Assembly (NCBI GenBank): GCA_910574345.1
Contig: CAJSZV010000002.1
Location: forward strand, 186,001-250,000
Reading direction: 5' to 3'
Origin: Clostridiaceae bacterium
GTDB lineage: Bacteria > Bacillota > Clostridia > Lachnospirales > Lachnospiraceae
DNA length: 64,000 nucleotides
Shown here: positions 25,469-64,000 of the stretch, piece after piece
How positions within the stretch are numbered: the stretch's first letter is position 1
How the letters are laid out: the number at the start of each line of letters is the position of its first letter
Position numbers and translations under genes: made by a program
The notes under the pieces: model-generated
The model's database searches: none
What the model was told of the DNA's origin: nothing
Seen by the model: the letters and a program-made list of their open reading frames with translations, nothing else

Positions 25469-25633
25469 GGGGTCAAAAGGTTTTTTGACCCCTTTGATAC
25501 GGGATTGCTCCGCGCTTTGTGCTGCCGCAATCCTCAAAAACATGAAAAATCCGCCCTAATCGGGCTGCTTTTTCATGTTTTTGGCGGGTCTCAAGTATTA
25601 TAGGTTTAGTACCTGCCGGAGATTCTCTCCGGC
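25469..25633. other. Array of three stem-loops after the GT gene
   Basis: Three inverted repeats in a row: GGGGTCAAAA/TTTTGACCCC (25469-25492); a 14-bp perfect pair AAAAACATGAAAAA (25536-25549) with its complement at 25569-25582, with a small GCCC/GGGC inner stem; and GCCGGAGA/TCTCCGGC (25615-25633). GGATTGC/GCAATCC (25502-25533) adds a fourth pairing. The first is a plausible terminator. The rest looks like a mobile or dispersed intergenic element; no ORF is present. Confidence 0.7.
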
Positions 25634-25698
25634 GGGATTCGGAAAAGTCTGTTTTATCGTGTTATCATTATGCGGTTTCAGCAGAGAAATCAAAGATA

Positions 25699-60359: not shown

Positions 60360-60466
60360 TAAGAGAATAGAGAACAGACATTGGCTTGAAGACAACGGTT
60401 TAAGAGTATAACCGCGTGCCATATAAAAGATGTAAAGCCTATTAAGTGATTCAATATTATAAAAAT

Positions 60467-60548
60467 AAAGGGGAGCTTGTGGAACAGGCTGAGAGGAAAT
60501 TGAGAATTTCGACCCGTAACCTGATTTGGATAATGCCAACGTAGGGAT
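60467..60548 (+). ncRNA. TPP riboswitch (THI box)
   Basis: Conserved elements in order: GGGGAGC, the CTGAGAGGAAA core (60488 on), ACCCGTAACCTGAT, and TGGATAATGCCAACGTAGGGA. It controls the transporter operon downstream through a terminator. Thiamine pyrophosphate binding should turn the operon off. Confidence 0.95.
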
Positions 60549-60564
60549 TCATATGGAACCTTTT

Positions 60565-60594
60565 ATGACTGCCGTTATCCGTGCAGTCATTTTT
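60565..60594 (+). terminator. Expression-platform terminator of the TPP riboswitch
   Basis: ATGACTGC (60565-60572) / GCAGTCAT (60583-60590) followed by TTTT, 16 bases after the aptamer and 52 bases before the permease gene. Confidence 0.8.
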
Positions 60595-60646
60595 ACGTTT
60601 AAAAGAAGTTAAACCTTGTGAGAGGCAAGGCTGAAGGAGAAGATTT

Positions 60647-61399
60647 ATGAAAAAATACAATCAAAAAATTATGCCGGTTATGCTGATCGCCGCACTGCTG
60701 ATCATATGGGAAGGAGCGGTTTATGCTTTTCATATTCCCATGTATGTCCTGCCCTCCCCCACGGAGGTTATGAAGGCTTTGACAGAGGAGGCAGGGGTGC
60801 TGATGGGACATGGCGCGGTTACCGTGGCTGAGGCCTTGATGGGAATGGGAATCTCTCTGGCGCTGGCTGTGTTTCTGGGAATTGTTATGGACTGTTTTCC
60901 TTTGGTGCGTCAGGGGCTTTATCCGATCTTAGTGGTGACCCAGACAGTTCCCATGATTGTCATGGCTCCGGTTCTCATTATTTATATGGGATTTGGCATT
61001 GCCCCCAAGATTCTTACGGTGGTGCTTATGTGTTTTTTCCCTGTGGCAGTCAGTTTTTGCGACGGTCTTGCCCAGGTGGATGAGGAGTATGTGAATCTGG
61101 TGAGGTCTTATGGTGCAGGAAAGTTAAAATCTTACGGCCTGGTGAAGATTCCGGCCGCTGTGCCGGCCCTTATCTCAGGTCTTAAGGTGGCGGCCACATA
61201 CAGCATAAGCGGCGCGGTGGTGGGGGAATGGATTGGTGCCCAAAAGGGACTTGGGTATTATCTCCTTCGTGTGAAAAACAGTTACATGCTGGACCGGGTA
61301 TTTGCCTGTGTGACGGTGATTGTCTTTTTGAGTTTGTGTATGAACGGAGTGATTCGTTTGTATCAATACAGGGCACTGCCTTATATGAGGAGAAAATGA
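60647..61399 (+). CDS. thiX: ThiX-type ABC permease for a thiamine pyrimidine precursor
   Basis: A 250-aa permease with about six helices and the EAA loop (LVRSYGAGKLKSYGLVKIPAAVPALISGLKVA). It is first in a TPP-riboswitch operon with the binding protein and ATPase, so the likely cargo is a hydroxymethyl- or aminomethyl-pyrimidine. The family is shared with sulfonate/taurine transporters; the riboswitch decides the call. AAGGAG before ATG 60647. Confidence 0.85.
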   Translation: MKKYNQKIMPVMLIAALLIIWEGAVYAFHIPMYVLPSPTEVMKALTEEAGVLMGHGAVTVAEALMGMGISLALAVFLGIVMDCFPLVRQGLYPILVVTQTVPMIVMAPVLIIYMGFGIAPKILTVVLMCFFPVAVSFCDGLAQVDEEYVNLVRSYGAGKLKSYGLVKIPAAVPALISGLKVAATYSISGAVVGEWIGAQKGLGYYLLRVKNSYMLDRVFACVTVIVFLSLCMNGVIRLYQYRALPYMRRK

Positions 61400-61412
61400 A
61401 AAGGAGGACATT

Positions 61413-62471
61413 ATGAGAAAAAGATGGATTGGAACAAGGATACTGGCAGGTTTGACAGCTGCGGCCATGAGCGCCGCGGCATGGGGCTGTTCGGCGCAGA
61501 AAGGGGAAGAAGGCGGGAAGACGGAAGAGACGCAGAGGACGGAACATAAAGGAAATTCTGCAGAACCGGAGGACGTGACGGTTATCCTTGATTATGTGGC
61601 CAACACCAATCATACGGGAATGTATGTGGCTCTTGATCAGGGGTATTATGAAGAAGAAGGGCTGAATGTAAAGATTATTGAGCCCACAGAAGGGGCTACG
61701 GCTACCTTGATCGCTGTGGGAAAGGGGGATTTTGGAATCAGTTATCAGGAGGATGTGACCATAGCCCTTGCCTCGGCGGATCCTCTTCCCATAAAGGCTG
61801 TTGCTGCCGTTATTCAGCACAATACTTCCGGCTTTGCCGTTTATGCAGACAAAGATATCCGGTCTCCCAAGGATTTTGAGGGAAAGACCTATGCCGGTTG
61901 GGGCGGGCCGGGCGAGGAGGCGGTTCTTCGGGCGGTCATGGATCAGGATGGGGGAGATTTTTCCAAATTGAATATGGTGATTTCGGACGGGTCCGGTTTT
62001 GAGGCTCTGAAGGATAAGGCAGATGTGATGTGGTTTTTTGAGGGGTGGGATAATGTAAAATGTGAGCTCAATGATTTTCCCATCCGCTATATGCCGGTGA
62101 AAGATTTGGATGAGAGACTTGACTACTATACTCCTGTAGTCATTGCCAGTAAGGATACGTTGGAGACAAGACCGGATATGGTCCGCAGATTTTTAAAAGC
62201 TACAGCCAGGGGATACGAGTATGCCATAGCCCATCCGGAAGAAAGCGCCGGGATTCTTCACGCTTATGCGCCGGATTATTCTCTCGATATGCTTACCATG
62301 TCTCAGAAATATCTCAGCGAAAAGTATGCAGAGGATGCTCCCAGGTGGGGAGAGATGAAAAAAGAAGTATGGGATCGCTATACGGATTTCATGGTGGAAT
62401 ATGGTGTGATTGACAAGGCCATAGAGGCGAGGGAGTGTTATACCAATGAATTCCTTCCAGCAGAACCGTAA
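61413..62471 (+). CDS. thiY: ThiY-type substrate-binding lipoprotein
   Basis: A 352-aa NMT1/THI5-like lipoprotein: lipobox AWGC (about C26), then VTVILDYVANTNHTGMYVALDQGYY-EEEGLNV, and a GDFGISYQEDVTIAL motif. It captures the pyrimidine for the neighbouring permease. GAGG upstream of ATG 61413. Confidence 0.88.
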   Translation: MRKRWIGTRILAGLTAAAMSAAAWGCSAQKGEEGGKTEETQRTEHKGNSAEPEDVTVILDYVANTNHTGMYVALDQGYYEEEGLNVKIIEPTEGATATLIAVGKGDFGISYQEDVTIALASADPLPIKAVAAVIQHNTSGFAVYADKDIRSPKDFEGKTYAGWGGPGEEAVLRAVMDQDGGDFSKLNMVISDGSGFEALKDKADVMWFFEGWDNVKCELNDFPIRYMPVKDLDERLDYYTPVVIASKDTLETRPDMVRRFLKATARGYEYAIAHPEESAGILHAYAPDYSLDMLTMSQKYLSEKYAEDAPRWGEMKKEVWDRYTDFMVEYGVIDKAIEARECYTNEFLPAEP

Positions 62472-62480
62472 GGAAAGGCC

Positions 62481-63263
62481 ATGAGGCGGAATATGAAACT
62501 GAAAGTGGAAGAACTGACATTTTCCTATGAAAACAGAAAGGTATTGGACTCCATTGGATTTGCTGTGGATGAGGGGGAGTTTGTAAGTCTTTTGGGTCCG
62601 TCGGGAAGCGGAAAATCCACAATCCTGAAACTTCTCACAGGAGTTCTGACTCCTTTTGGAGGAAGCATAGCGGTGGATGACAGGCCGGTGGAAGGGCTGT
62701 CTCAGCATTTTGCCTACATGCCGCAGAACGATCTTTTGTTTCCCTGGAAGACCATACTGGATAATGTATGCCTTTATGGACAGATTCACGGTTCCTTGGA
62801 GGCCATGCGCCGGGAGGCAAAAGCCAGTTTTCCTGAATTTGGCCTGGCAGGCTATGAAGACTCCTATCCTTCCCAGCTGTCGGGAGGAATGAGGCAGCGG
62901 GCGGCATTTTTGAGGACAGCTCTGTGCAAGGCGGATATTCTGCTTTTAGATGAACCCTTTGGAGCTTTGGATGTGATTACAAGGGGAGAGATGCAGGACT
63001 GGCTTCTAAAGATCCGCAGGAAATTAAACCGGACCGTGGTGTTAGTGACCCATGATATGGACGAGGCCATCTACCTTTCGGACCGGATATTGATTCTTAA
63101 CCAGTCGCCGGCCCGGATTACCCATGAGATTGTGGTGGAGGGAAGGCAGCGCGACCGGCAGTGGCTTTATGGGCAGGGAGAACTGCGAAAGGAAATCTAT
63201 GACCGGATTATGGCAGGAGTCAGGGAGGTGAAAACATATGACAGTTCCATGGCTCCTCAGTGA
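62481..63263 (+). CDS. thiZ: ThiZ-type ABC ATPase
   Basis: A 260-aa ATPase: Walker A GPSGSGKST, Q-loop MPQNDLLFPW, signature LSGGMRQRAAFLRTAL, Walker B ILLLDEPFGALD, H-loop VVLVTHDMDEA. AAGGAAAGG upstream. The TatD-like gene overlaps its end by 26 bp. Confidence 0.92.
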   Translation: MRRNMKLKVEELTFSYENRKVLDSIGFAVDEGEFVSLLGPSGSGKSTILKLLTGVLTPFGGSIAVDDRPVEGLSQHFAYMPQNDLLFPWKTILDNVCLYGQIHGSLEAMRREAKASFPEFGLAGYEDSYPSQLSGGMRQRAAFLRTALCKADILLLDEPFGALDVITRGEMQDWLLKIRRKLNRTVVLVTHDMDEAIYLSDRILILNQSPARITHEIVVEGRQRDRQWLYGQGELRKEIYDRIMAGVREVKTYDSSMAPQ

Positions 63264-64000
63264 CGCCCACGGACATATGGGCACGAAGGCGGAACGAAAC
63301 GAACGAAGGGAAGCCGGAATTCCCAGCATTTTGTGTGCAATTACCCCGAAAGAGGCAAAAGAACTGATCAGAGAAAGCCGGGAGGAGAACCTTGGGGGAG
63401 AAGACGGCCGGCAGCAGGAGAGATATCTTTTTCCCGCTGCCGGCATCCATCCCTGGTATGCGGACCGGTATGAACTGCAGGATATGGAAACATGGATGGA
63501 GCGCTGTCCCCTTATAGGTGAAATCGGCATGGACAGCGTCTGGTGCAGTGTGGATCTGAAGACTCAGGAAATTAGATTTCGGCAGCAGCTGGAACTGGCC
63601 TTGAGACAGAACAAGCCGGTTATTCTTCACACCAAAGGACAGGAAAAGGAAATAGGAGATGTGATCAGACAATATCCGAACCGTTATCTGGTTCACTGGT
63701 ATTCCTGTGATTCTTATCTGGAAAAATATCTTGAGATGGACTGTTGCTTTTCCATAGGACCTGACGTATGGTGGAATCCTTCCGTACAGAACACGGCGCG
63801 GCAGGTTCCCGCAGACAGACTTCTTATAGAGACAGACGGACTTGACGCGGTGAAATGGGCTTATGAGGAGGGGATAAAGGCTTTCAAAAAGAATATAATA
63901 AAAAAGCCGGAAACATGGGAGGGGACAGAGCATGTGACATTTGCCCTGGCTCATACACTGGAAGCAGTGGCGGAGATACGGCATATGCCGCCTGAAAGGC
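63238..64000 (+). CDS. TatD-like metal-dependent hydrolase (3' truncated)
   Basis: The frame runs off the window end (254 codons seen). TatD-type metal ligands are all in place: DAHGH near the start, the Glu in LIGEIGMDS, His in VILHTKG, His in YLVHWYS and Asp in LIETDGLD. GGAGGTG at 63224-63230 is well placed for ATG 63238, which overlaps thiZ by 26 bp, so it belongs to the TPP-controlled operon. TatD proteins are nucleases or general amidohydrolase-fold enzymes. Its place here suggests processing of an imported pyrimidine, like YlmB in Bacillus, but that is inference. Confidence 0.85.
   Translation, partial: MTVPWLLSDAHGHMGTKAERNERREAGIPSILCAITPKEAKELIRESREENLGGEDGRQQERYLFPAAGIHPWYADRYELQDMETWMERCPLIGEIGMDSVWCSVDLKTQEIRFRQQLELALRQNKPVILHTKGQEKEIGDVIRQYPNRYLVHWYSCDSYLEKYLEMDCCFSIGPDVWWNPSVQNTARQVPADRLLIETDGLDAVKWAYEEGIKAFKKNIIKKPETWEGTEHVTFALAHTLEAVAEIRHMPPER

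What the first reader, a model, noticed from the sequence alone, without database searches (positions are those of the whole stretch)
60467..64000. TatD-like hydrolase translationally coupled to a TPP-controlled ThiXYZ transporter
The hydrolase overlaps thiZ by 26 bp, with a strong ribosome site, so it is inside the thiamine regulon. Bacillus uses the amidohydrolase YlmB next to ThiXYZ to deformylate an imported pyrimidine. A TatD-fold enzyme could be a non-orthologous replacement, which I have not seen described.
Basis: inference. Interest (0 to 1): 0.7.

Follow-up and report, generated by a model that had tools for sequence, protein, structure and literature searches.

The report
Hydrolase tied to thiamine uptake genes
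A bacterium switches on a vitamin B1 importer together with an enzyme of a family known for cutting DNA, and the same pairing recurs in related bacteria, which suggests that the enzyme works on a vitamin B1 compound.

Summary
A TPP riboswitch with a terminator is followed by thiX, thiY, thiZ and a TatD-family gene that overlaps thiZ by 26 nt behind a strong ribosome site. The pairing recurs: 56 of 79 related loci have thiZ upstream of tatD, and 51 of those 56 have a TPP riboswitch. These TatDs keep the metal ligands but share signature residues of their own.

The 'YlmB replacement' reading fits badly. ThiY's nearest solved relative is thiamin-bound (57% identity); the formylaminopyrimidine binder has 25%. 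TenA, which YlmB's product needs, is missing here and in 46 of 49 carriers. ThiE has no strong match in 25 of 49, so those could not use a pyrimidine. TatD also follows ThiT in a Blautia and a ThiBPQ-like set in a Treponema, each behind a TPP riboswitch.

Best reading: thiamine uptake with a dedicated hydrolase acting on a thiamine derivative, perhaps a phosphate ester. No reaction is shown. One printed table row (Bacillus methanolicus) lists such an operon; the passages seen do not comment on tatD.

The parts
60459..60564 (+). TPP riboswitch aptamer
   Evidence: Rfam RF00059, 68.2 bits, E 2.8e-11
60565..60594 (+). intrinsic terminator directly after the aptamer (likely expression platform)
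   Evidence: hairpin at -12.6 kcal/mol, z -4.98, followed by a U run
60647..61399 (+). thiX-type ABC permease
   Evidence: PF00528 103.5 bits
61413..62471 (+). thiY-type substrate-binding protein
62481..63263 (+). thiZ-type ABC ATPase
   Evidence: PF00005 105.3 bits
63222..63230 (+). Shine-Dalgarno-like AGGGAGGTG, 7 nt before the tatD start, inside thiZ
   Evidence: read directly
63238..64000 (+). TatD-family hydrolase gene (cut by the window; ends at window-equivalent 64053, 271 aa)
   Evidence: PF01026 101.6 bits on the cut protein; full ORF in L004:3238-4053; model with mean pLDDT 94

Best explanation
This is a TPP-repressed vitamin B1 uptake operon. When TPP is scarce the riboswitch lets transcription pass the terminator, and the cell makes a ThiXYZ transporter for thiamine or a thiamine derivative, together with a translationally coupled TatD-family hydrolase. 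The hydrolase belongs to a distinct TatD subfamily: it keeps the metal site but has lost the RG..N-type loop motif of the genome's canonical TatD and has its own conserved Trp, Tyr, Lys and Glu. It most likely hydrolyses a thiamine derivative brought in by the transporter, or made from the imported vitamin, so that thiamine or TPP is released. A phosphoester (TMP, TPP, or a thiamine nucleotide) is the chemically most conservative guess for this fold. Shown by sequence: the operon, its riboswitch, its conservation, the link to three transporter types, the lack of ThiE and TenA in many carriers, and the signature residues. Inferred: that the imported compound is thiamine-like, and that TatD acts on it. 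Guess only: the phosphoester.
For: Conserved order thiX-thiY-thiZ-tatD behind a TPP riboswitch. ThiY is 57% identical to thiamin-bound 4nmy and 25% to the formylaminopyrimidine binder 3ix1 (phmmer E 1.1e-115 against 2.5e-26). 25 of 49 thiXYZ-tatD genomes have no strong ThiE match, and none of those 25 has ThiC or TenA. All 25 have a TPP riboswitch at the thiXYZ-tatD place, and in 21 no other was found. A TPP-ThiT-TatD operon in Blautia L046 and a TPP-ThiB-ThiP-ATPase-TatD operon in Treponema L093. W73, K133, E136, W154, Y155, G201 and W207 are in all 57 thi-linked rows; the own canonical TatD has S, R, A, C, F, C, E there. The fold lies next to TatD proteins, then to other amidohydrolases, many of them phosphotriesterase-like.
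Against: No reaction is shown. Missing TenA and ThiE do not mark TatD carriers out: the Thiamine_BP-thiXYZ genomes without adjacent TatD look alike (TenA 1 of 30; strong ThiE 9 of 26; ThiC 5 of 26). 24 of 49 carriers, and this genome, do have ThiE, so pyrimidine use is possible in them. This genome has a HAD hydrolase gene between thiE and thiD, of the kind reported as TMP phosphatase, which would make a second one partly redundant. TPK and ThiL were not tested. Relatives in Levilactobacillus, Peptostreptococcus and most of the Treponema loci carry the gene away from thiamine genes. G152 has TPP-thiXYZ with its TatD elsewhere. Two of the 25 (G200, G201) have partial, borderline ThiE-model matches that reach Pfam's cut-off. 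ThiE absence in drafts could be incompleteness. A ThiE-independent TMP synthase was not searched for.
Confidence: 0.5

Rival explanations
1. One reading: ThiXYZ imports N-formyl-aminopyrimidine and TatD deformylates it in place of YlmB.
For: The best-described relative system pairs a ThiY-type binding protein with a hydrolase (PMC5627462, passages); this genome has thiE and thiD and lacks thiC, so it needs an outside pyrimidine if it uses them.
Against: No TenA in this genome or in 46 of 49 carriers; no strong ThiE match in 25 of 49; ThiY nearest to a thiamin-bound protein; TatD also behind ThiT and a ThiBPQ-like transporter.
Confidence: 0.1
2. TatD replaces YlmB and TenA together, turning an imported pyrimidine precursor into hydroxymethylpyrimidine.
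For: Would make sense of carriers with ThiE but without ThiC or TenA, such as this genome.
Against: Useless in the 25 of 49 carriers without a strong ThiE match, where this is the only TPP-controlled locus found in 21. TenA is just as rare in genomes without adjacent TatD (1 of 30).
Confidence: 0.1
3. TatD clears or repairs a damaged thiamine or a thiamine antimetabolite that comes in with the vitamin.
For: Same genome patterns as the main reading; four ThiE-less carriers have a second TPP-controlled thiamine transporter (ThiT in G215, G222, G224; Thiamine_BP-like gene with thiXYZ in G201).
Against: No compound singled out; nothing here separates it from ester hydrolysis.
Confidence: 0.12
4. 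The gene is an ordinary TatD nuclease that is co-transcribed by accident.
For: It is a PF01026 TatD protein with all metal ligands.
Against: Below the TatD exonuclease cut-off (92.3 of 206 bits); the RG..N-type loop motif is absent in all 57 thi-linked rows and present in the own canonical TatD; the own genome has a separate canonical TatD gene; the operon recurs in Lachnospiraceae, Erysipelotrichaceae and Enterococcaceae.
Confidence: 0.08

Closest known systems
ThiXYZ-YlmB-TenA salvage of base-degraded thiamine (Bacillus; described in PMC5627462, passages seen)
   Same: TPP-controlled ABC transporter with a ThiY (NMT1-type) binding protein; a hydrolase in the same pathway
   Different: TatD, not YlmB (an M20-type enzyme, recalled); no TenA here or in 46 of 49 carriers; ThiY nearest to a thiamin-bound protein
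Clostridium difficile thiamin-bound binding protein, PDB 4nmy
   Different: its own gene neighbourhood was not examined
(TPP)-tauA-BMMGA3_09465-tauC-tauB-tatD of Bacillus methanolicus MGA3 (PMC4342826, table row and passage seen)
   Same: TPP riboswitch, ABC transporter and tatD as last gene
   Different: no comment on tatD in the two passages seen; its sequence was not compared here; the same table lists a separate (TPP)-tenA-tauB-tauC operon
Thiamine_BP-thiX-thiY-thiZ operons of Lachnospirales
   Same: ThiXYZ, with a TPP riboswitch in the 7 loci of this kind given to Rfam
   Different: lead gene is PF01910 in 12 of 12 tested; no TatD downstream in 26 of 26 loci read (one contig ends after thiZ); ThiY 34-42% identical to the window's
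Canonical TatD/YcfH nucleases and QatD
   Different: scores below the exonuclease and QatD cut-offs; different residues at the signature positions

Membership tests
TatD family (PF01026) | Pfam model over its gathering score | tested here: met
   101.6 bits against 27
TatD family (PF01026) | HxH, Glu, His, His, Asp metal ligands (motif recalled) | tested here: met
   H11, H13, E95, H131, H153, D200 in all 57 thi-linked rows
TatD family (PF01026) | TIM-barrel fold of TatD type | tested here: met
TatD exonuclease (TIGR00010) | score over the curated cut-off | tested here: not met
   92.3 of 206 bits, on the protein as cut by the window
TatD exonuclease (TIGR00010) | nuclease activity | not testable with these tools
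   needs an assay
QatD (anti-phage Qat system) | score over the NCBIfam cut-off | tested here: not met
   68.9 of 230 bits; PADLOC QatD 55.3 bits, less than the own canonical TatD's 68.5
TPP riboswitch | RF00059 over its gathering score | tested here: met
   68.2 against 54.3 bits
ThiXYZ-YlmB-TenA pyrimidine salvage | TenA in the genome | tested here: not met
   no PF03070 match in G000; found in 7 of 14 control genomes
ThiXYZ-YlmB-TenA pyrimidine salvage | YlmB in the genome | tested here: inconclusive
   17 M20-family matches; no YlmB sequence at hand to tell orthologues
ThiXYZ-YlmB-TenA pyrimidine salvage | ThiY binds formylaminopyrimidine | tested here: inconclusive
   nearest solved protein is thiamin-bound, 57% against 25%; ligand not measured
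Thiamine-type ThiXYZ ('ThiXYZ2' in Table 1 of PMC6593275) | imports thiamine | not testable with these tools
   supported by 4nmy and ThiE-less carriers; the paper's ThiXYZ2 sequences were not seen

The most novel reading that the evidence does not exclude
A TatD subfamily has left nucleic acids and become the enzyme of an undescribed vitamin B1 salvage step: it frees thiamine or TPP from a thiamine conjugate and has been recruited to three unrelated thiamine importers (ThiXYZ, ThiT, ThiBPQ-like) under TPP riboswitch control.
Probability: 0.4. Interest if true: 0.72.

Novelty: new variant of a known kind. Interest (0 to 1): 0.5.

Why it matters
In 21 of 25 carriers without a strong ThiE match this operon is the only TPP-controlled locus found, so it looks like their way to vitamin B1. 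If its last gene works on a thiamine compound, these bacteria may live on a form of the vitamin that is not counted at present, and a family named for DNase activity would gain a vitamin-salvage branch. It also warns against reading every ThiXYZ as a pyrimidine importer.

Tried and rejected
Rejected: a sole YlmB role, because TenA and often ThiE are missing. A plain nuclease reading, because the subfamily lacks the canonical loop motif and scores below the exonuclease cut-off. Qat defence: low scores. A thiamine-splitting role for TatD, because ThiE-less carriers could not rejoin the halves.

Led nowhere: telling YlmB from other M20 proteins (no reference sequence). Levilactobacillus, Peptostreptococcus, Weissella and 8 of 9 Treponema loci showed no thiamine importer beside tatD (L091 and L094 are too short upstream to tell). 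Ten literature searches, judged from listings, gave no paper on a thiamine role for TatD. Of the listed papers that hold the word TatD I opened two: PMC4342826 (the table row) and PMC4572677 (where tatD is named only with protein secretion). Supplements were not readable.

Limits: one search kept the best 80 of 96 relatives, was seeded with five thi-linked TatDs, and used two peptide patterns, one of which contains HWYS, so W154 and Y155 are partly selected. The TPP model was trained on 20 aptamers, 9 of which are the same DNA as aptamers in the 79 loci searched (L047, L055, L056, L068, L077 directly; L015, L016, L018, L150 under other ids). The script's 709-nt gap for L029 is an artefact; by eye tatD overlaps thiZ by 32 nt there. 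One search scored at most 74 candidates per genome. The tree's deep forks are weak.
Full report
What is there. The window ends in a TPP-controlled operon: aptamer 60459-60564, terminator hairpin 60565-60594, thiX, thiY, thiZ and tatD. The tatD start lies 26 nt inside thiZ behind AGGGAGGTG, so translational coupling is likely (read). The window cuts tatD; the full protein has 271 residues. Downstream comes an HSP20-like gene (named by eye) with a promoter-like site before it, though such sites are about as common as in shuffled sequence. The genome has a second TPP riboswitch, before thiM, thiE, a HAD hydrolase gene and thiD. It has no ThiC match, no TenA and no ThiT.

Conservation. In 200 genomes of the same family, 7 have a close relative of this TatD. 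In 5 of the 7 it follows thiZ (the window's own, G119, G113, G016, G059); in G142 and G152 it does not. A scan of named species genomes, seeded with those five thi-linked TatDs and so biased towards them, gave 79 loci, the best of 96 relatives. In 56 of the 79 a thiZ-like gene lies upstream of tatD: 37 overlap it, 8 are within 0-29 nt and 11 are further off, up to 1,028 nt (with L029 corrected by eye; start codons were picked by script). Of the 56, 51 have a TPP riboswitch upstream on the same strand. Two of the other five are cut by the contig end (L040, L048); L027, L034 and L081 have none by either search, and L027 and L034 show no thiY either. Carriers include Lachnospiraceae, Erysipelotrichaceae and Vagococcus. 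An Enterococcus faecium plasmid carries the same set with an RF00059 match. On a tree of 81 TatDs the thi-linked label needs 10 changes against 21.0 for shuffled labels, though deep forks are weak.

A control set. Among 392 genomes of the order, 35 have a ThiY match at E 1e-50 or better. They fall in two groups. Five are 65% or more identical; of these, 4 have tatD next to thiZ (G000, G059, G256, G346) and one (G152) has TPP-thiXYZ with its TatD elsewhere. Thirty are 43% or less; of the 26 read, none has TatD downstream (in L164 the contig ends after thiZ). Their first gene is a Thiamine_BP protein in 12 of 12 tested. So TatD goes with one ThiY group. The groups are not mutually exclusive: G201 has both. 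The loci are related by descent, so I give no significance value.

These absences are not peculiar to TatD carriers. Thiamine_BP-thiXYZ genomes have TenA in 1 of 30, a strong ThiE in 9 of 26 and ThiC in 5 of 26. So they speak about the transporter's cargo, against a pyrimidine; they do not by themselves say that TatD replaces anything.

TatD with other thiamine importers. In Blautia sp. RGIG5147 (L046) a TPP riboswitch (69.2 bits) is followed by a ThiT gene (PF09515 113.2 bits; TIGR02357 102.5 of 108.45) and tatD, whose ATG overlaps the thiT stop by 1 nt. In Treponema sp. RGIG28 (L093) a TPP riboswitch that just reaches Rfam's gathering score (54.3 bits) ends at the start of a ThiB-type gene (TIGR01254 267.3 bits, cut-off 93.4), followed by a ThiP-like permease and an ABC ATPase, both below their cut-offs, and tatD overlapping the ATPase gene by 17 nt. 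None of the eight other Treponema loci shows this, two of them being too short upstream to tell. The Treponema proteins form a separate, distant branch. Recruitment to three importer types points to thiamine itself rather than to a feature of ThiXYZ.

The enzyme. The model is confident; its nearest solved folds are TatD proteins, then other amidohydrolases, many phosphotriesterase-like. All 57 thi-linked rows keep the metal ligands, and all have W73, K133, E136, W154, Y155, G201 and W207; the own canonical TatD has S, R, A, C, F, C, E there. W154 and Y155 lie in one of the two search patterns, so their constancy is partly selected. Most of the 25 relatives outside the operon share K133, E136, W154, Y155 and W207, so these mark the subfamily, not the operon. 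The RG..N-type loop motif of the own canonical TatD is absent from all 57 and from the 25. Whether these residues line the pocket was not computed. The guess of a phosphoester rests on the fold's usual chemistry and on recall that all three importer types can accept thiamine phosphates; no call shows it.

Against my reading. This genome has thiM, thiE and thiD, so it could use outside pyrimidine and thiazole. Its HAD gene in the thiE operon resembles enzymes reported as TMP phosphatases (title of Hasnain et al. 2016 seen in the reference list of PMC5627462; paper not held), which would make a TatD phosphatase partly redundant. Levilactobacillus relatives have TenA (5 of 5), and their TatD shows no thiamine importer beside it. 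YlmB presence, TPK and ThiL were not settled.

Known or new. PMC4342826 lists '(TPP)-tauA-BMMGA3_09465-tauC-tauB-tatD' in Bacillus methanolicus beside a separate TPP-tenA operon, without comment on tatD in the two passages seen. I found no paper on a thiamine role for TatD in searches, which cover open-licence papers only and were judged from listings. I rate it a new variant of a known kind: a TatD subfamily tied to thiamine uptake, reaction unknown.

Noticed in passing
L046:7223-8747: Blautia sp. RGIG5147: TPP riboswitch, thiT and tatD in one operon, a second importer type with this TatD.
   Followed up: partly
L093:4524-8585: Treponema sp. RGIG28: TPP riboswitch, ThiB-type, ThiP-like, ABC ATPase and tatD in a row; the aptamer runs into the first gene's start.
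   Followed up: partly
L229:2334-5723: Enterococcus faecium plasmid pK21EFM001_1_3 carries a TPP riboswitch with thiXYZ-tatD.
   Followed up: partly
L007:8935-9636: A HAD hydrolase gene lies between thiE and thiD behind the genome's second TPP riboswitch; possible TMP phosphatase.
   Followed up: no
L230:3147-6234: Genome G201 has both ThiXYZ types: one led by a Thiamine_BP-like gene (by eye) and one ended by TatD, each with a TPP riboswitch.
   Followed up: partly
L152 and L020: G152 has TPP-thiXYZ without adjacent tatD, while its TatD lies on another contig and groups among thi-linked rows in the tree.
   Followed up: partly
L027 and L034: Two loci have thiX-thiZ-tatD but no thiY and no TPP riboswitch, behind an Atg22/MFS-like gene (Pfam on L027 only).
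   Followed up: no
L231:2358-6346: Breznakiella homolactica has a weak TPP match before a three-gene ABC set, with its TatD (L053) elsewhere on the chromosome.
   Followed up: no
window 25495-25667: Clostridiales-1 RNA on the - strand (Rfam RF01699, 61.6 bits).
   Followed up: no
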